64,000 bases of DNA from Blastococcus sp. HT6-4 (GTDB lineage: Bacteria > Actinomycetota > Actinomycetes > Mycobacteriales > Geodermatophilaceae): positions 2,542,001-2,606,000 of the forward strand of contig NZ_CP155551.1 in the NCBI RefSeq assembly GCF_039679125.1. The letters run 5' to 3'. Each line of letters starts with the position of its first letter. Position 1 is the stretch's first letter. Shown piece after piece: positions 38,163 to 47,991 of this stretch. The notes beneath the pieces were generated by a model. That model was not told where the DNA came from, made no database searches, and worked only from the letters and a program-made list of their open reading frames with translations. A program made the position numbers and the translations under genes.

Positions 38163-39386
38163 GTGGCGTTCTACCGGCAGGTGGGCGAGGTCCCACCGAA
38201 GCGGCACACCCAGTTCCGCCGGCCCGACGGCGGCCTGTACTCCGAGGAGCTCGTCGGCGAGGAGGGGTTCTCGTCGGACTCCGCGCTGCTCTACCACCGG
38301 GGCATCCCGTCGGCGATCGTCGACGCCCGCCCGTGGGAGCTCCCCGACCAGACGCTGACCCCCAACGCACCGCTGGTGCCGCGGCACCTCAAGCTGCACG
38401 ACCTCTTTCCCGGCGAGGAGGCCACGTCATTCCAGGAGCGCGGGTCCACCGATGCGGTGACCGGCCGGCGGCTCGTGCTGGGCAACGGGGACGTCCGCAT
38501 CTCCTACGCCGTCTCCTCGGTGCCCTCGCCGTACTACCGGAACGCGACCGGTGACGAGTGCGTCTACGTCGAGCGCGGCGCGGCGACGGTGGAGACCTCG
38601 TTCGGCGCCCTCGAGGTGGGCCAGGGCGACTACGTGATCCTGCCGCGGACCACCACGCACCGCTGGGTCCCGACCGGGAACGAGCCGCTGCGGACGTACG
38701 TCGTCGAGGCCAACAGCCACATCGCCCCGCCCAAGCGGTACCTCTCCCGGTACGGGCAGTTCCTCGAGCACGCGCCCTACTGCGAGCGGGACCTGCGCGC
38801 CCCCACCGAGCCGCTGCTGGCCGAGGGCACCGACGTCGAGGTCTACGTCAAGCACCGCGGCGCCGGCCCCGGCGGGCTCGCGGGCACCGTCCACGTCGTC
38901 CCGGAGCACCCCTTCGACGTCGTCGGCTGGGACGGCTGCCTCTACCCGTACGCCTTCAACATCGCCGACTTCGAGCCGATCACCGGCCGGGTCCACCAGC
39001 CGCCGCCGGTGCACCAGGTCTTCGAGGGCCACAACTTCGTGATCTGCAACTTCGTGCCCCGGAAGGTCGACTACCACCCGCAGGCGGTGCCGGTTCCCTA
39101 CTACCACTCCAACGTCGACTCCGACGAGATCATGTTCTACGTCGACGGCGACTACGAGGCCCGCAAGGGGTCCGGCATCGGCAAGGGATCGGTCTCCGTG
39201 CACCCGGGCGGGCACTCGCACGGCCCGCAGCCGGGCGCGGTGGAGCGGTCGCTGGGGATCGAGTACTTCGACGAGCTGGCCGTCATGGTCGACACCTTCC
39301 GGCCGCTGGATCTGGGTGAGGCAGGCGTCGCCGCCGACGACGGGAAGTACGCCTGGACCTGGTCGGGACGGGGCCCGTCGTCGTGA
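38163..39386 (+). CDS. hmgA: Homogentisate 1,2-dioxygenase
   Basis: 407 residues. VAFYRQVGEVPPKRHTQFR at the N-terminus, VYVERGAATVETSFGALEVGQGDYVILPR in the cupin core, VVGWDGCLYPYAFNI, and YYHSNVDSDEIMFYVDGDYEARKGSGIG carrying iron-site residues. It opens the ring of homogentisate to maleylacetoacetate. GTG 38163 is preferred because AAGGAGG is seven bases upstream; the ATG at 38157 is only one base from it. It overlaps fahA by one base. Confidence 0.94.
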   Translation: MAFYRQVGEVPPKRHTQFRRPDGGLYSEELVGEEGFSSDSALLYHRGIPSAIVDARPWELPDQTLTPNAPLVPRHLKLHDLFPGEEATSFQERGSTDAVTGRRLVLGNGDVRISYAVSSVPSPYYRNATGDECVYVERGAATVETSFGALEVGQGDYVILPRTTTHRWVPTGNEPLRTYVVEANSHIAPPKRYLSRYGQFLEHAPYCERDLRAPTEPLLAEGTDVEVYVKHRGAGPGGLAGTVHVVPEHPFDVVGWDGCLYPYAFNIADFEPITGRVHQPPPVHQVFEGHNFVICNFVPRKVDYHPQAVPVPYYHSNVDSDEIMFYVDGDYEARKGSGIGKGSVSVHPGGHSHGPQPGAVERSLGIEYFDELAVMVDTFRPLDLGEAGVAADDGKYAWTWSGRGPSS

Positions 39387-40588
39387 TGACCGGCTGGCTC
39401 GACCTGCCGGCCGACACCGGCTTCGGCCTCGGCAACCTGCCCTACGGCGTCTTCTCCACCGCGGGCACCCGGCCCCGCACCGGGGTGGCGATCGGCGGCT
39501 CGGTCCTCGATCTGCACGGCGTCACCGGCGACGACGCGCACGCCACCGGTTCCCTCAACGCCTTCATGGCCCGGGGCCCGGAGGCGTGGGGGGCGCTGCG
39601 GTCGGACCTGACGGAGTGGCTCACCGACGCGGCGCACCGCGAGCGGGTCGAGCCGCACCTGGTCCCGCAGGGCGAGGTGACGATGCACCTGCCGGTCGAG
39701 GTGGCCGACTACGTCGACTTCTACAGCTCCCGGCACCACGCGGAGAACCTCGGCCGGATGTTCCGCCCGGACTCGGCAGCGCTGACGCCGAACTGGAAGC
39801 ACCTGCCGATCGGCTACCACGGCCGCTCCGGCACGGTGCGGGTCTCCGGCACCCCGGTGGTCCGCCCGTCCGGTCAGCGCAAGGCGCCCACCGACGACGC
39901 TCCCACCTTCGGGCCCTCGCAGCGCCTGGACATCGAGGCGGAGGTCGGCTTCGTCGTCGGCACGCCCTCGGACCTCGGCCGCCCGGTGCCGCTGGGCGCC
40001 TTCCCGGAACACGTGTTCGGCGTCTGCCTGGTCAACGACTGGTCGGCCCGCGACCTGCAGTCCTGGGAGTACGTGCCGCTCGGCCCTTTCCTCGGCAAGT
40101 CGTTCCTCACCTCGGTGTCGCCCTGGGTGGTGCCGCTGGCCGCACTGGACGAGGCCCGCGTGGCCCCGCCCGCCCGCGACCCGAAGCCGCTGCCCTACCT
40201 CGACGACACCGGCAGCGAGCCCTGGGGCCTGGACATCGCCATCGAGGTCCACCTCAACGGCGAGCTGATCTCCTGCCCGCCTTTCGACCTCATGTACTGG
40301 ACGCCGGCGCAGCAGCTCGCGCACATGACCGTCAACGGCGCCAGCCTGCGCACCGGCGACCTGTACGCCTCCGGCACCGTCTCGGGCCCCCGGCCGGACC
40401 AGCGCGGCTCGTTCATCGAGCTCTCCTGGGGCGGGGAGGAGCCGCTCCGGCTCGCCGACGGCTCGACCCGCACCTTCCTCGAGGACGGCGACGTCGTCAC
40501 CCTCACCGCCACCGCGCCGGGAGCCGGCGGCAGGCGGATCTCCCTCGGCGAGGTAACCGGCCGGATCGAGCCGGCATCCGCGCGATGA
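39386..40588 (+). CDS. fahA: Fumarylacetoacetase
   Basis: 400 residues. An N-terminal SH3-like domain precedes the catalytic beta-roll. EVADYVDFYSSRHHAENLGRMFRP, GYHGRSGTVRVSGTPVVRP, IEAEVGFVVGTP and NDWSARDLQSWEYVPLGPF contain the metal and catalytic residues. It splits fumarylacetoacetate into fumarate and acetoacetate. With hmgA it completes homogentisate (tyrosine/phenylacetate-type) degradation; no maleylacetoacetate isomerase is seen here. ATG 39386 overlaps the hmgA stop. Confidence 0.95.
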   Translation: MTGWLDLPADTGFGLGNLPYGVFSTAGTRPRTGVAIGGSVLDLHGVTGDDAHATGSLNAFMARGPEAWGALRSDLTEWLTDAAHRERVEPHLVPQGEVTMHLPVEVADYVDFYSSRHHAENLGRMFRPDSAALTPNWKHLPIGYHGRSGTVRVSGTPVVRPSGQRKAPTDDAPTFGPSQRLDIEAEVGFVVGTPSDLGRPVPLGAFPEHVFGVCLVNDWSARDLQSWEYVPLGPFLGKSFLTSVSPWVVPLAALDEARVAPPARDPKPLPYLDDTGSEPWGLDIAIEVHLNGELISCPPFDLMYWTPAQQLAHMTVNGASLRTGDLYASGTVSGPRPDQRGSFIELSWGGEEPLRLADGSTRTFLEDGDVVTLTATAPGAGGRRISLGEVTGRIEPASAR

Positions 40589-40914: not shown

Positions 40915-40942
40915 GTCGGAGGCGGACGAGGTCGCCTCCGAC
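40915..40942. terminator. Terminator hairpin
   Basis: Perfect arms GTCGGAGGCG (40915-40924) and CGCCTCCGAC (40933-40942) enclose an eight-base loop. It lies between the convergent zinc-ribbon gene and the TusA-like/ferritin-like gene, touching the latter's stop codon. Confidence 0.8.
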
Positions 40943-42135
40943 TACATGAAGTTGCCCGTGTGGAGCGCAGAGAGCTCCGAGGCTTCGTCGTCCGGGAAAC
41001 CGAGCCTGTGCAGCCGCTGACGCCTGCCGTCGTCCATGGCGCCGTGCAGGTCCTGGACCGCGCGATAGCCGCGAGCGATCGCCTCGGGCGTCCAGGAACC
41101 GGCCGCGAGGAGCACGAGGGAGTCGAAGACGTCCGCATTGAGTCCTGCGGTGTCGGCCAGCGCGTCGTGCCGCCGCTCGACCGCGGCCCGCAGTCGTCCT
41201 CTCAGTGTGGGGTCGAGCCTGCCCTGGTGCTCGAGGTGTGCGACCCCGAACGCCACGTGCCTGGCCTCGTCGACGCGAGCGAGACGGGTGACCTGTCGGG
41301 TCACCGGGTCCGGCGCGTGTTGGTCGAGGAAACCGAGCAACGACAGGAAACTGCCCTCACCGAGCACGGACAGCAGGAACGAGGCGAGGGAGAAGTCCGG
41401 CTCGTCGAGCAGCGAGTGGAGCGAGGCCCGCCCACCGGCCGAGCTCGTCCCCATGTCACTGCCGGTCAACAGGGCGCGACGGGTGAAGATCTCCATGTGG
41501 CGGGCTTCGTCGGCGGCCTGCACCGCGAGCAGTTGGAGCACCTCGTGGAAGTGCGGATGGACTCGGGCCAGCAAGCGGGACGGGATGACCAAGGCGGCCT
41601 TCTCGTTCTCGACGAGGTAGGTCATCACCTGGACGACGGCGGTCTCGATCTCGGGCGCCAGTGGATCCTGGATCGCCCAGTCGACCGCCGTCGCCGGATC
41701 CCACTGGGCGGCCGCCGCGTGGGCGTAGAGGCGAGGTGCGAGATCGGCCCAGACGACGTCCCGATCGGCGATGTCGAAGCCCGGGGTCGGACCACCGGCC
41801 TCCACGAGAGCGCCACGAGCCGCGAGCCCCCAGTTCGCCGGTGGGTGGCGGACGATCCCTGCGGGAGTCGGCCCGCCGGCCCGCTCCGCCCCAGCCCACC
41901 GCCGCTCCTCGGCTTCCCCGCGGACCACGTCGTACCCGCCGTCGGGGTCGACGGAGAATCCGTGGCCCTGGGCCCGGCACCAGGCGCGCAGGTGGACGCC
42001 GAGCGAGGGGTCGGTCCCGCGGACCCGCAGCCGACCGCGGACCGGGAGAGACTGGAGCCCTCGTTGCACCAGCATGTGCGCACCGTTGTCGAAACCGAGC
42101 CGCGCCAGGTCCAGCAGCGCGGCGGGAGCGGTCAC
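40942..42135 (-). CDS. Degenerate TusA-like domain fused to diiron ferritin-like domain
   Basis: 397 residues. Residues about 8-73 follow the TusA/SirA pattern: DLARLGFDNGA, then LPVRGRLRVRGTDPSLGVHL, and AWCRAQGHGFSV matching the TusA WC-x-x-x-GH turn. The catalytic Cys-Pro of true TusA is absent. Residues about 125-305 are a four-helix diiron site with two repeats of carboxylate plus EARH: E176 or E178 with E210-A-R-H213, and E260 with E290-A-R-H293. That is the full ligand set of a ferritin-like oxygenase. The enzyme is thus probably an O2-using diiron protein with an attached sulfur-carrier-like substrate domain. GTG 42135 overlaps the upstream stop (GTGA). Last gene of a three-gene operon; substrate unknown. 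Confidence 0.8.
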   Translation of the reverse strand: MTAPAALLDLARLGFDNGAHMLVQRGLQSLPVRGRLRVRGTDPSLGVHLRAWCRAQGHGFSVDPDGGYDVVRGEAEERRWAGAERAGGPTPAGIVRHPPANWGLAARGALVEAGGPTPGFDIADRDVVWADLAPRLYAHAAAAQWDPATAVDWAIQDPLAPEIETAVVQVMTYLVENEKAALVIPSRLLARVHPHFHEVLQLLAVQAADEARHMEIFTRRALLTGSDMGTSSAGGRASLHSLLDEPDFSLASFLLSVLGEGSFLSLLGFLDQHAPDPVTRQVTRLARVDEARHVAFGVAHLEHQGRLDPTLRGRLRAAVERRHDALADTAGLNADVFDSLVLLAAGSWTPEAIARGYRAVQDLHGAMDDGRRQRLHRLGFPDDEASELSALHTGNFM

Positions 42136-42992
42136 GGCGCGTACCCCGCATCTCCGATCGAGCCGTCCCGGCCATAGAAGCCGCTCTCGTCGACGGCGTC
42201 GACCAATGGGCCGTAACCACTGACTCGACCTCGGCGCCACTCGTGCAACCCCTCCAGATCCATCAGCGGACGCACCTCGGGATCGGCGTACGACATCGAG
42301 AGCAGCAGCTCGATGAAGCGGTGGGTCAGTTCGGAAGGGCCGGTGTCGACCGTCGTCATCGTGCAGTGGTCGAAGACCGGTGTCTGCGCCAGCACCCGCG
42401 TCGTCTCGCTCGGCAGGACGCCCTCCTGGAGGAAGAGCAGGTGGTTGCCGTCGATCATGCAGGCGGCATCCACTTCCCCGGCCATCAACGCCCGGGCAGC
42501 GTCTCGTTCGCCGCCGATGTGGTCGCCGTGAAGACCGACCCCGACGTCGAAGTGGTGGACGGACAGGTCGTTGTCCGGATCCAGGTCGCTGGCCCGCAGG
42601 AGTGACAGCGGCAGCAGCGTGGCCTGCGGTGAGTCGATGGCACCCGTACCCACCGACCGTCCCTTCAGGTCCGTGACCGAGGTGATGCCGGAGTCGGTGC
42701 GGACCACGATCACCGAGGTGAGGTCCTGATCCGTGTCGCGCATGACCGTCGAGCGGACCGTGCGTCCCCTGGCAGCGGCCAGACGGTCGGCCCGTATCCA
42801 CGCAAGGGGTGAGTTCCATGCGGCGTCCAGGTGACCGGCGACGAGGTCCTCGACCTGGCGCTCGTAGTGGGAGTAGAGGACGAAGTCGAACGGCAGGCCC
42901 GCGGCGCGGAACCACCTGCGAAACCCCTCCCAGATCGTCACGACCTTGGCGTCGTACGCGACGGCACCCATCACGAGCACGTCCCCAGGCAT
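42132..42992 (-). CDS. PhnD-like substrate-binding protein without signal peptide
   Basis: 286 residues. The two-lobed binding-protein fold of the PhnD (phosphate/phosphite/phosphonate) family shows in HYERQVEDLVAGHLDAAWNSPLAW, SVIVVRTDSGITSVTDLKGR, then SVGTGAIDSPQATLLPLSLL. It begins MPGDVLVMGAVAYDAK, with no secretion signal or lipobox, and no ABC permease or ATPase is near, so it is likely cytoplasmic and not part of a transporter. It may be an enzyme, like THI5-type proteins of the same fold, or a substrate-presenting subunit. ATG 42992 overlaps the dehydrogenase stop (TGATG), and its end overlaps the TusA-like/ferritin gene. Confidence 0.82.
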   Translation of the reverse strand: MPGDVLVMGAVAYDAKVVTIWEGFRRWFRAAGLPFDFVLYSHYERQVEDLVAGHLDAAWNSPLAWIRADRLAAARGRTVRSTVMRDTDQDLTSVIVVRTDSGITSVTDLKGRSVGTGAIDSPQATLLPLSLLRASDLDPDNDLSVHHFDVGVGLHGDHIGGERDAARALMAGEVDAACMIDGNHLLFLQEGVLPSETTRVLAQTPVFDHCTMTTVDTGPSELTHRFIELLLSMSYADPEVRPLMDLEGLHEWRRGRVSGYGPLVDAVDESGFYGRDGSIGDAGYAP

Positions 42993-44155
42993 CAGGCGTC
43001 CGCCCCGTCGAACAGCGGCAAGCCGAGGCTGATCCGGCCGACGAAGTCCTGGAGGGCCGCGGTCGTGGGTGCCATGACGCGTGCCGCGAGCGTGTCACGG
43101 AAGCGGCGCTCGACTCCCAGTTCCTTGCGGAAGGCTGCACCGCCGCAGAGCTTCATCACCCCGTCCGCGACGTCGGAGGCCGCCTCCGCGGCGACCGCCT
43201 TGACCTCCAGCACACGGAGCGTGCCGTCGCCCCGTCCGGAGGCCAGTGCCGCCAGGGTGTCGGCGAGGAAGGCCTCGACGCCGTCGACGACCATCCGAAG
43301 CCGGGCGAACTCGGCACGCGCCACCGGTTGTTCCGCGAGCGAGGCGCCGAGATGCTCCAACCGGGTGTGCGTGAGATGCGTCGACGCGTCAGCGAGGAGC
43401 GCCCGCATCAGCCCCAGGGAGAAGGCGGCGTTGCCCACGAGGAACGTGGGCAGTGCCGTGGCCAGCGCAATGGTCAACCCCTCACCGTCATGTCCCAACT
43501 GCGCGTCGGTGGCCACTCGAACGCCTCGGGCCTGGATCGGCCGGGAGGAGTTCCCGCGGAGCCCCACGCCGTCGAACGGTCCACTGATGGTCAGTCCGGG
43601 AGCGTCCGCCGGCACGAACCAGAGGGTCATCGGTCCCTTGGCGCGAACCGGGCGGCTGGACCACACGTAGCTGTCGGCCTCACCCGCCGAAGTCACCCAG
43701 CTCTTGGTCGCGTCGAGCTGGACGTGGTCGGCGTGCGGTGTCGCGCTGCTCATCGGCGCCCAGAAGTGGCTACGTGACCCCGGTTCCGAGAAGGCCAGCG
43801 TGCTGACGTGTTCACCTCGGGCGATCGCCCGCCGGACCTCCTCGGGCCCGTGCGCCTCCAGCACGGCGCTCGCCGCGTAGTGCATGAGCAGAACCATCGC
43901 CGCTGACCCGTCGGCCGCTGCGACCCGCTCGACCACCGCAGCCATGTCCGCCAGCGATCCACCGTGCCCACCGACCTCGCGGGAACTCAGGAGACCGAGA
44001 GCTCCCGCCCGCGCCAGCGCATCGAGGCTGGCTCGGGGGAAGGTGCCGGTGGCGTCGATGGCGACCGCCTCGGGGCCCACCGTGTCGGCGAGGGCAGCGG
44101 CCAGTCGGCTGGACAGGTCCGACGTGGGACCCTCAACGATGGGGGTGGCGGTCAT
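42992..44155 (-). CDS. Acyl-CoA-dehydrogenase-like flavoprotein
   Basis: 387 residues, complete ACAD architecture: helical N-terminus (LGLLSSREVGGHGGSLADMAAVVERVAAADGSAAMVLLMHYAA), beta domain (ALAFSEPGS-like region STLAFSEPGSRSHFW; SWVTSAGEADSYVW) and C-terminal helical domain ending DTLAARVMAPTTAALQDFVGR. The segment VMAPT (about 360-364) occupies the place of Y-x-G-T with the catalytic Glu in classical enzymes, which here is Ala. So an altered reaction, such as flavin-based oxygenation or a base at another site, is possible. First gene of the operon with the PhnD-like and ferritin-like genes. ATG 44155. Confidence 0.85.
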   Translation of the reverse strand: MTATPIVEGPTSDLSSRLAAALADTVGPEAVAIDATGTFPRASLDALARAGALGLLSSREVGGHGGSLADMAAVVERVAAADGSAAMVLLMHYAASAVLEAHGPEEVRRAIARGEHVSTLAFSEPGSRSHFWAPMSSATPHADHVQLDATKSWVTSAGEADSYVWSSRPVRAKGPMTLWFVPADAPGLTISGPFDGVGLRGNSSRPIQARGVRVATDAQLGHDGEGLTIALATALPTFLVGNAAFSLGLMRALLADASTHLTHTRLEHLGASLAEQPVARAEFARLRMVVDGVEAFLADTLAALASGRGDGTLRVLEVKAVAAEAASDVADGVMKLCGGAAFRKELGVERRFRDTLAARVMAPTTAALQDFVGRISLGLPLFDGADA

Positions 44156-46494: not shown

Positions 46495-47991
46495 TCACCT
46501 TCCTCCGAGCTTGTTCTGGATGAACGTGTACGCCGCGTCCCCGATACCCGTGGCGTACTGGGCCGTGTTCTCGATCGACGACCGGAAGTGCACGCCGGCC
46601 CAGAATCTGCTCAGGCTGCAGTCGTTGGCCATGTCGGTCCACGTGTCCCAGTGCAGGACGAGGTCGTTGGCCGGTGTCACCCCGGGCTCGACGAAGGACG
46701 ACCCCTTCATCCGTGGGAGGGTGATGTCGATCTGGTCGGTGCCGAGGAATCGTCGCGCCGCCTGGGCGTAGGCGAGGCAGAGCGCCGCCGAGCCGGAGGG
46801 GTACTCCGGGTGATCCGCCGTCGTGAGGTAGCTCCGCCACTCGGAGCCCCTGATGTCGCTGACGGTCCCCTTTCCGGGGCCACCCCAGGCGGTCAGCTTC
46901 TTGTTGCCGTAGAGATGGCGGATCGCGCTGAACGGACGGACCGAGTCGAACTTCCGCTTGAAGTACCAGCTGGCGACGGCAGCATCGAATATGGCGATCT
47001 CCACCGTGGCGACGTAGTGGATGGTCTTCTCGATGTCCATCCGACCCGCCATCGCCGCTGCACCGCCGGCGACGATCCCGAGGGCGAAGATCTTGTCGTT
47101 GAACAGTTCGGCGATCATCTTCTGCCGGTCAGTCATCTGCGCCGACGCATCGATCACCTCGTCCACCTGTCGCCTGTACGACGGCCCACGGTGGTGCATG
47201 CTCTTGAACGGGGGCGACAATGTGAGATCTGACGGTCTGCCGTAGGTGATCGGCTTGACCTGACCGTACTGCGGTGTCACGAACTGCTGAACCGTGAAGA
47301 TGCCGTCCCTGGAGATTATGTTCGGCTGCCAGCGGGACGGATCAGTCAACTCGTAGGCGGTATTGACCGGCCGATATCCGGTGTAGTCCGCATAGGGCTG
47401 TCGATTGTACGTACGCCCCCCCGCGTCGCCCGCACGGTTCGAGCCGTCGTTGCGCCGTGCTTCCAGGACCATTCTGGCCGCGAGATTGCCGATTCCGGCC
47501 GGAGAGGTTCGGTTCTCCTCCCTGTTGTCGGGATCGAGGCCGGCCGACGCCACCATCGCGCGCCACTCGGCATGGGCGTGCGGAAAGGTGACGTTCAGCG
47601 TCGTATAGGCAGCGTAGATGACCGCCGTGTTCTTGTTCCGGATCGTGTCCTCGCTCCGGGGACGGCGACCGAGGTCGGAGAATATGCCGACGGCCGTCTG
47701 GTGGTACGGAGCGATGGCGTCGAACCAGGCCAGCTCGGGCAGCAAGAGCTGATCGACGACGAGTGTGGCATCCGATCCGTCCGGCGTCTGCAGCCGCTGC
47801 ACCCGCTCGAGGGGAGGGTAGATGACCTCGAACAGGGCGTTTCCGTGATCGATGTCGAATACGCCACCGACCGGTGGCGCAGCCTCGGCCCGCCCGGCCG
47901 CCAGATGCTGCATGACCACTGTGGCGGCGGCGACGGATCCGGCCGTCGCCAACATCTGACGTCGACTCAGGCTCACACTCTCGGATATCAC
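46495..47991 (-). CDS. Tat-exported vanadium-dependent haloperoxidase homologue
   Basis: 498 residues. A Tat signal (SLSRRQMLATAGSVAAATVVM with cleavage near AEA-A at about 37) leads to a vanadium-haloperoxidase/PAP2 fold. Vanadate-pocket motifs are WYFKRKFDSVRP (Lys345/347, Arg352), HPEYPSGSA (396-402 region) and LSRFWAGVHFRSS (Arg462, His468). Ser401 stands where classical enzymes have the acid-base His of PSGH, so halide oxidation may be reduced or changed. It may also be a phosphatase-like or isomerase relative. GTG 47991 has GGAGGG upstream. Codon use is less GC-skewed than the core genes, suggesting transfer. Neighbours are the MFS gene and a gene-poor stretch. Confidence 0.85.
   Translation of the reverse strand: MISESVSLSRRQMLATAGSVAAATVVMQHLAAGRAEAAPPVGGVFDIDHGNALFEVIYPPLERVQRLQTPDGSDATLVVDQLLLPELAWFDAIAPYHQTAVGIFSDLGRRPRSEDTIRNKNTAVIYAAYTTLNVTFPHAHAEWRAMVASAGLDPDNREENRTSPAGIGNLAARMVLEARRNDGSNRAGDAGGRTYNRQPYADYTGYRPVNTAYELTDPSRWQPNIISRDGIFTVQQFVTPQYGQVKPITYGRPSDLTLSPPFKSMHHRGPSYRRQVDEVIDASAQMTDRQKMIAELFNDKIFALGIVAGGAAAMAGRMDIEKTIHYVATVEIAIFDAAVASWYFKRKFDSVRPFSAIRHLYGNKKLTAWGGPGKGTVSDIRGSEWRSYLTTADHPEYPSGSAALCLAYAQAARRFLGTDQIDITLPRMKGSSFVEPGVTPANDLVLHWDTWTDMANDCSLSRFWAGVHFRSSIENTAQYATGIGDAAYTFIQNKLGGR

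What the first reader, a model, noticed from the sequence alone, without database searches (positions are those of the whole stretch)
40942..42135. Diiron ferritin-like oxygenase with a TusA-like N-terminal domain lacking the sulfur-carrier cysteine
Two complete carboxylate plus EARH half-sites (E176/E178 with E210-H213; E260 with E290-H293) show a diiron enzyme. The N-terminal ~65 residues follow the TusA pattern (T-D-P, then W-C-x-x-x-G-H) but lack the Cys-Pro that carries persulfide. A broken carrier domain fused to an oxygen-using diiron domain suggests a substrate-docking role or an unusual organosulfur reaction. I know of no characterised protein with this architecture.
Basis: partly seen in the sequence, partly recalled or inferred. 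Interest (0 to 1): 0.78.

Follow-up and report, generated by a model that had tools for sequence, protein, structure and literature searches.

The report
Interchangeable enzyme on Cys-less TusA domain
A bacterial iron enzyme carries a sulfur-carrier-like domain that has lost its sulfur-carrying residue, and a related disabled domain in the same small gene cluster is elsewhere joined to a completely different, radical-forming enzyme, which suggests that it is a docking handle for interchangeable enzymes in an unexplored pathway.

Summary
The minus-strand gene 40942-42135 (397 aa) has a TusA-like N-terminal domain without Cys-Pro and a ferritin-like diiron domain. In 50 family members the ligands E178, E210, H213, E260, E290 and H293 are invariant, and none has a Cys before residue 34. 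AlphaFold gives a beta-alpha-beta-alpha-beta-beta unit, pLDDT above 90 at residues 11-70, then a helical core like VlmB, ADO and R2lox. Profile comparison links the N-terminus to genuine TusA.

New here: it is gene 3 of an overlapping cassette with a FadE16-like flavoprotein lacking the catalytic Glu and a PhnD-fold binding protein. Of 43 genomes with that binding protein, 34 have this TusA-diiron gene beside it, 5 instead have the Rv1681-type radical SAM protein, which bears a related Cys-less TusA-like domain, 4 have neither, none has both. So a degenerate TusA domain is attached to an O2-using diiron module or to a radical SAM module in the same cassette. Best reading: it docks alternative C-H-activating enzymes onto a shared partner or substrate. 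Substrate and reaction are unknown.

The parts
40942..42135 (-). TusA-like + ferritin-like diiron fusion protein, 397 aa, GTG start, gene 3 of the cassette
   Evidence: ORF and translation; relatives; structure
41920..42120 (-). TusA-like domain, residues 6-72 (E6-9 H19-28 E35-39 H45-56 E59-62 E68-71)
   Evidence: hhalign against genuine TusA 96.6%, E 6e-10, controls; pLDDT block means 91-94 over residues 11-70
42082..42087 (-). residues N17-G18, where TusA has Cys-Pro (placement by eye)
   Evidence: G18 47/47; no Cys before residue 34 in any of 50 rows
41215..41655 (-). four-helix diiron core, residues 161-307
   Evidence: helices; Foldseek and VIA matches to ADO, VlmB, R2lox
41602..41604 (-). 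E178, expected iron ligand
   Evidence: 50/50 invariant
41497..41508 (-). E210-A-R-H213, expected iron ligands
   Evidence: 50/50 invariant
41356..41358 (-). E260, expected iron ligand
   Evidence: 50/50 invariant
41257..41268 (-). E290-A-R-H293, expected iron ligands
   Evidence: 50/50 invariant
42132..42992 (-). PhnD/PtxB-fold binding protein of the Rv1680 type, 286 aa, starts directly in the mature fold; 4-bp overlap with the diiron gene
   Evidence: NF049985 229.2 bits, below its cut-off of 400; PF12974 103.7 bits; AlphaFold pLDDT 90.6, first strand at residues 6-11; PtxB TM 0.70; junction
42992..44155 (-). FadE16-like acyl-CoA-dehydrogenase-fold flavoprotein, catalytic Glu replaced (VMAPT for YEGT); 1-bp overlap with the binding-protein gene
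   Evidence: NF049984 339.9 bits, below its cut-off of 600; PF02770/PF00441; alignment to solved ACADs; V360, M361, P363 and T364 51/51, A362 50/51

Best explanation
The gene encodes the O2-using version of the third enzyme of a small uncharacterised pathway. SHOWN: (1) an N-terminal TusA-like domain without the persulfide Cys-Pro is fused to a domain with a complete, invariant diiron ligand set; (2) the gene overlaps a PhnD-fold binding-protein gene, which overlaps a FadE16-like flavoprotein gene whose product lacks the acyl-CoA dehydrogenase base; (3) in other genomes the same pair is followed by a radical SAM protein carrying a related Cys-less TusA-like domain, and none of 43 genomes has both kinds beside the pair. 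INFERRED: the TusA-like domain is a docking or substrate-presenting module that brings a C-H-activating enzyme to the binding protein or flavoprotein; the substrate is a small anionic compound held by the binding protein in the cytosol; the diiron core (structural relatives VlmB, ADO, R2lox) does with O2 what the radical SAM core does with a 5'-deoxyadenosyl radical. The substrate is not known.
For: Fusion and fold. Cassette: a binding-protein gene is next to the diiron gene in 20 of 22 loci of the species-wide scan, the other two (L016, L017) being cut by contig ends; an ACAD-like gene lies in the same 20 (a short frame in L012, and only 41% identical to the window's in L018). Apart from antisense frames no other family recurred in more than 9 of the 49 loci compared, on a filtered ORF set. 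The window junctions overlap by 4 and 1 bp; a 4-bp overlap between binding protein and diiron gene appears in 34 of 53 extracted rows (some genomes twice, starts chosen by script). In L092 and L095 the gene order differs but the three genes stay together. Exchange: 31 genomes with the binding protein among 397 of the order are 27 diiron and 4 radical SAM; 12 further ones from a phylum draw of 396 are 7 diiron, 1 radical SAM and 4 neither. Radical SAM type: NF049973 537.6 bits against cut-off 380; its N-terminus against the diiron N-terminus 92.6%, E 6e-8, against TusA 90.2%, E 1.8e-7, 22 controls at most 1.4%. In the binding-protein tree the radical SAM clade groups with 7 divergent diiron cassettes at 100/100, apart from the other 43 diiron rows. 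G000 has no Rv1681-like protein: best 75.3 bits against cut-off 380.
Against: Four genomes have the pair without a TusA-X gene next to it. Two of them (G190, G420) have an Rv1681-like radical SAM protein without the TusA-like domain elsewhere in the genome, and G499 has the end of one directly upstream whose N-terminus is beyond the contig, so the domain is not indispensable in that lineage. G245 has a diiron cassette and also a TusA-less radical SAM protein. The TusA-like domain is less conserved than the core (mean pairwise identity 51% against 67%). A same reaction for both modules is inferred from context alone. The exchange rests on 5 radical SAM cassettes and on a short N-terminal domain that in them lacks the first strand. 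Four of five AlphaFold models have mean pLDDT of only 54-62, and the fold of the N-terminus was not tested by structure search. The binding-protein tree is unrooted and several branches are long. G420 also holds a Cys-less TusA-like sequence outside the cassette (L191).
Confidence: 0.55

Rival explanations
1. The two third enzymes do different chemistry: the conserved flavoprotein and binding protein make or capture an intermediate, and radical SAM and diiron enzymes take it to different products, as tailoring enzymes do. The TusA-like domain is still the shared docking part.
For: Radical SAM or TusA-less loci carry DoxX/DoxD-like and glycosyltransferase genes (TIGR04282 among them) whose families did not recur in diiron loci. 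L099 has a MetE-like gene overlapping the pair instead. G245 keeps both a diiron cassette and a TusA-less radical SAM protein.
Against: No genome of 43 has both TusA fusions beside the pair, which fits alternatives for one step better than branch points; the diiron cassettes show no widely shared further gene.
Confidence: 0.25
2. The TusA-like domain is still a sulfur-handling domain that uses another thiol, such as C53 or a Cys of the partner, so the pathway moves sulfur.
For: C53 sits in the TusA W-C-R-x-x-G-H stretch and is present in 39 of 50 members. DoxD-like neighbours of radical SAM type or TusA-less loci match a thiosulfate:quinone oxidoreductase family weakly. The flavoprotein has sub-cut-off matches to SfnB and 3-sulfinopropanoyl-CoA desulfinase models, among many other acyl-CoA dehydrogenase models.
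Against: C53 is Ala in 11 of 50, and no Cys lies at or near the TusA carrier position.
Confidence: 0.1
3. The N-terminal domain is a relic of a fusion without present function, and the enzyme is an ordinary ADO/VlmB/R2lox-like oxygenase.
For: Lower conservation of the N-terminus; TusA-less radical SAM relatives exist.
Against: W52 48/50, R54 50/50, G57 48/50 and G18 47/47 stay conserved while the carrier Cys is lost, and a related domain is present on a second, unrelated catalytic module in the same cassette.
Confidence: 0.1

Closest known systems
TusA (PF01206) sulfur carrier
   Same: Strand/helix order of residues 6-72 (TusA topology recalled), W-C-R-x-x-G-H segment, profile similarity to genuine TusA at 96.6%; E. 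coli TusA chains 1dcj and 3lvj appear weakly, E 0.45-0.48, in the profile search of solved structures
   Different: No Cys-Pro; fused to a catalytic domain; below the Pfam gathering score
VlmB azoxy synthase / cyanobacterial aldehyde-deformylating oxygenase / R2-like ligand-binding oxidase
   Different: About 14-20% identity in the matched rows; the matches cover the core only; substrates differ from one another and are unknown here
AurF (PF11583)
   Same: 28.1 bits over residues 202-302
   Different: Just below the gathering score 29.6; only part of the domain matched
Rv1679-Rv1680-Rv1681 type cassette (NCBIfam NF049984, NF049985, NF049973)
   Same: Same flavoprotein and binding-protein families and a related Cys-less TusA-like domain on gene 3
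   Different: Gene 3 is radical SAM there and diiron here; the window's first two genes score below those models' cut-offs
Oxygen-dependent / oxygen-independent enzyme pairs (HemF/HemN and the like; recalled)
   Same: Two unrelated enzyme classes occupying one place in a pathway
   Different: Here a shared accessory domain is kept through the exchange; the reaction is unknown

Membership tests
TusA sulfur carriers | TusA fold / profile | tested here: met
   hhalign 96.6%, E 6e-10; controls at most 3.5%; predicted strand/helix order. Pfam hit below gathering score; not tested by structure search
TusA sulfur carriers | Carrier Cys followed by Pro | tested here: not met
   N17-G18 in the window; no Cys before residue 34 in any of 50 rows
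Ferritin-like diiron oxygenases/oxidases | E, ExxH, E, ExxH on four helices | tested here: met
   Six residues invariant in 50/50, on four successive helices of the model
Ferritin-like diiron oxygenases/oxidases | Binds two metals and activates O2 | not testable with these tools
   Needs protein
VlmB / ADO / R2lox | Same core fold | tested here: met
R2-like ligand-binding oxidase (NCBIfam PRK08326) | Score above equivalog cut-off | tested here: not met
   18.8 and 15.6 bits against 315 and 194
Acyl-CoA dehydrogenase (partner gene) | Catalytic Glu (YEGT position, or the isovaleryl-CoA dehydrogenase position, the latter recalled and placed by eye) | tested here: not met
   VMAPT in place of YEGT; P236-x-F238 51/51 near the other position
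PhnD/PtxB ABC-transporter binding protein (partner gene) | Fold | tested here: met
   PtxB E 1.8e-22, TM 0.70
PhnD/PtxB ABC-transporter binding protein (partner gene) | Export signal and transporter genes | tested here: inconclusive
   The protein starts in the mature fold (first strand at residues 6-11), but no signal-peptide predictor was run; no family recurred widely beside it, but not each neighbour was named
Rv1679-Rv1680-Rv1681 type cassette | Third gene is a radical SAM protein of NF049973 | tested here: not met
   Third gene is diiron; best NF049973 match in G000 is 75.3 bits against cut-off 380

The most novel reading that the evidence does not exclude
A TusA domain that lost its carrier cysteine has become a docking handle: in one conserved cassette it recruits either an O2-dependent diiron oxygenase or an O2-independent radical SAM enzyme to a cytosolic binding protein and a base-less flavoprotein, so that one unknown pathway, present also in mycobacteria as the Rv1679-Rv1681 type genes, runs with or without oxygen by exchange of one module.
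Probability: 0.4. Interest if true: 0.85.

Novelty: new variant of a known kind. Interest (0 to 1): 0.72.

Why it matters
It joins an unexplained mycobacterial gene set (Rv1679, Rv1680, Rv1681; the last often labelled moeX, a recalled label) to a second, oxygen-using form in harmless actinomycetes where it can be studied. It gives a candidate role to a TusA-like domain that cannot carry persulfide, and it is a natural case of exchange between a diiron and a radical SAM enzyme with the accessory domain kept. It also puts a question to the label of Rv1680 as a putative phosphonate transporter component (PMC8562490, one passage seen): the window's relative leaves no room for an export signal in its model, and its steady neighbours are enzymes.

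Tried and rejected
ParB-like hit (L063, 62% over 32 residues of the linker 65-96): a different protein, taken as chance. Other catalytic modules on the same degenerate domain: profile A4 in 296 genomes of the phylum gave 10 places at 51.7 bits or more, all cassettes already known here, then a gap to 41.5 bits; only the best 30 places became loci. Of the 29 loci read afterwards (20, 9), 19 have CP, 4 (L168, L170, L171, L174) keep a Cys without the Pro, and 6 have no CP. Five of these six look like chance; L191 (G420, 25.2 bits) is a Cys-less TusA-like sequence near a helix-turn-helix-like sequence in another frame and was not resolved. So a third kind of fusion is not excluded. In the four genomes without TusA-X, L191 is the only candidate for a separate Cys-less domain; G190, G499 and G420 also have TusA-like matches with CP. 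Plasmid carriage: no match. Arsenosugar pathway: suggested by TIGR04282/TIGR04283 names beside TusA-less radical SAM type loci and ArrX/AioX among structure matches, but these families do not recur in the diiron loci, and I did not pursue it. Function from papers: searches for Rv1679-Rv1681, moeX and fadE16 gave no function (listings, and passages of two papers); a hypoxia proteome names FadE16 in one clinical strain (PMC5017210, passages), which is weak. The structure matches shown cover residues 122-397 only. Alignment A3 had one row in a wrong frame and was replaced by A4. In one search the ACAD tree contains the divergent L018 row, and its grouping with radical SAM cassettes is not used; only 3 of 5 radical SAM cassettes are in it. 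Rows dropped: one search left out identical proteins and those under 330 aa; one search left out identical and odd-length proteins; one search left L018 out of the ACAD set.

Full report

The N-terminal domain. Pfam TusA is hit only weakly (15.1 bits, E 0.022). Its closest stand-alone matches in the order are mostly genuine TusA proteins with CPLPV (9 of the 10 frames read; the tenth is the ParB-like L063), a divergent family member reaches E 1.4e-4 (L092), and profile comparison with nine genuine TusA proteins gives 96.6%, E 6e-10. Twenty-two unrelated segments gave at most 3.5%. None of 50 rows has a Cys before residue 34. W52, R54 and G57, which these TusA proteins mostly also have, stay (48, 50 and 48 of 50).

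The cassette. The gene follows a PhnD-fold binding-protein gene (42132-42992; 4-bp overlap) and a FadE16-like flavoprotein gene (42992-44155; 1-bp overlap). In the species-wide scan 22 loci were found; 20 have both partners next to the gene and two are cut by contig ends. Apart from antisense frames no further family recurred in more than 9 of 49 compared loci. In two distant genomes (L092, L095) the order is changed, yet the three genes remain neighbours, which speaks for a functional unit. The flavoprotein has VMAPT where acyl-CoA dehydrogenases have the catalytic Glu (V, M, P and T 51/51, A 50/51), so it is probably not a dehydrogenase. The binding protein starts in the mature fold, is confidently modelled (pLDDT 90.6) and is nearest PtxB and PhnD. 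H155, D157, E162, H209 and C210 are conserved in at least 60 of 62 rows; a ligand or metal site there is inference.

The exchange. The first two genes match NCBIfam models named after M. tuberculosis Rv1679 and Rv1680, below the cut-offs. In genomes that hold a closer Rv1680 relative the next gene is a radical SAM protein (CxxxCxxC motif; NF049973, 537.6 bits in L077, 433.7 in L091). Its N-terminal stretch gives a sub-threshold TusA hit in L077 (14.5 bits) and none in L091, and as a profile of five sequences matches the diiron N-terminal profile at 92.6%, E 6e-8, and the TusA profile at 90.2%, E 1.8e-7 (22 controls at most 1.4%). It lacks the first strand and any Cys-Pro. Counting: order draw of 397 genomes, 31 with the binding protein at E 1e-30 or better: 27 diiron, 4 radical SAM. 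Phylum draw of 396 genomes, 14 with it, 12 new: 7 diiron, 1 radical SAM, 4 neither. Of the 4, G190 and G420 have a TusA-less Rv1681-like protein elsewhere, G499 has the end of one just upstream with its N-terminus beyond the contig, and G370 has a MetE-like gene overlapping the pair. The window genome has no Rv1681-like protein (best 75.3 bits against 380), and G052, G070 and G343, radical SAM type, have no diiron relative. In the binding-protein tree (59 rows) the five radical SAM cassettes form a clade (99/98) grouped with seven divergent diiron cassettes (100/100), so the diiron type is not one block against the rest in that unrooted tree (2 changes needed).

Mechanism. My reading is that the TusA-like domain docks the catalytic module to the binding protein or the flavoprotein, and that the diiron (O2) and radical SAM modules serve the same kind of step, removal of a hydrogen atom from an unreactive position. 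Shown are the fusions, the shared partners and the exclusive occurrence beside the pair; the docking, the common step and the substrate are inferred. The main doubts are the TusA-less radical SAM relatives, DoxX/DoxD-like and glycosyltransferase genes that occur near radical SAM type or TusA-less loci but did not recur near diiron loci, an unresolved Cys-less TusA-like sequence outside the cassette in G420 (L191), and the small number (5) of radical SAM cassettes.

Known or new. Paper searches for TusA with ferritin-like, diiron, radical SAM and fusion terms, for oxygen-dependent/independent pairs and for Rv1679, Rv1680, Rv1681, moeX, fadE16 returned nothing whose title or abstract start describes this architecture or cassette; passages of two papers were seen. 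One of them labels Rv1680 a putative phosphonate transporter component (PMC8562490). Each domain is of a known kind; the combination and the exchange appear undescribed in what I could search. The name moeX for Rv1681, the TusA topology and the HemF/HemN comparison are recalled.

Noticed in passing
L078:9263-9751 (G038): Only a C-terminal part of the diiron gene, with neither partner gene found in the 12-kb stretch, among genes that also flank the intact cassette in L156/L157: apparent decay of the cassette.
   Followed up: partly
L119:1366-3039 minus; L118:1883-3709; L120-L123: Rv1681-like radical SAM domain behind what looks like a metallophosphoesterase domain (judged by eye in the frames read, L118-L120; the start of the same motif in L121-L123), in L119 beside a TIGR04283 glycosyltransferase.
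   Followed up: partly
L168, L170, L171, L174: TusA-like proteins or segments that keep the Cys but lack the following Pro (GCADGL).
   Followed up: no
L191 (G420): Cys-less TusA-like sequence ending in a TusA-like IRKG stretch, near a helix-turn-helix-like sequence in another frame.
   Followed up: partly
L099:7259-8470: MetE-like protein (PF01717) overlapping the binding-protein gene by 4 bp where other genomes have the TusA fusion.
   Followed up: no
L076:4674-5633, L099:4369-5028, L101:331-1038, L116:6258-6806, L151:7272-8216: DoxX/DoxD-like membrane protein near radical SAM type or TusA-less loci, not clustered with any gene of the diiron loci.
   Followed up: partly
window 46495-47991 minus: Vanadium-haloperoxidase-like protein (VCPO_2nd, 193.8 bits) with a weak Tat-signal match, near the cassette.
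   Followed up: no
window 39383-40588 plus: Fumarylacetoacetase (449 bits) next to the cassette on the opposite strand; its family did not recur beside the cassette elsewhere.
   Followed up: no
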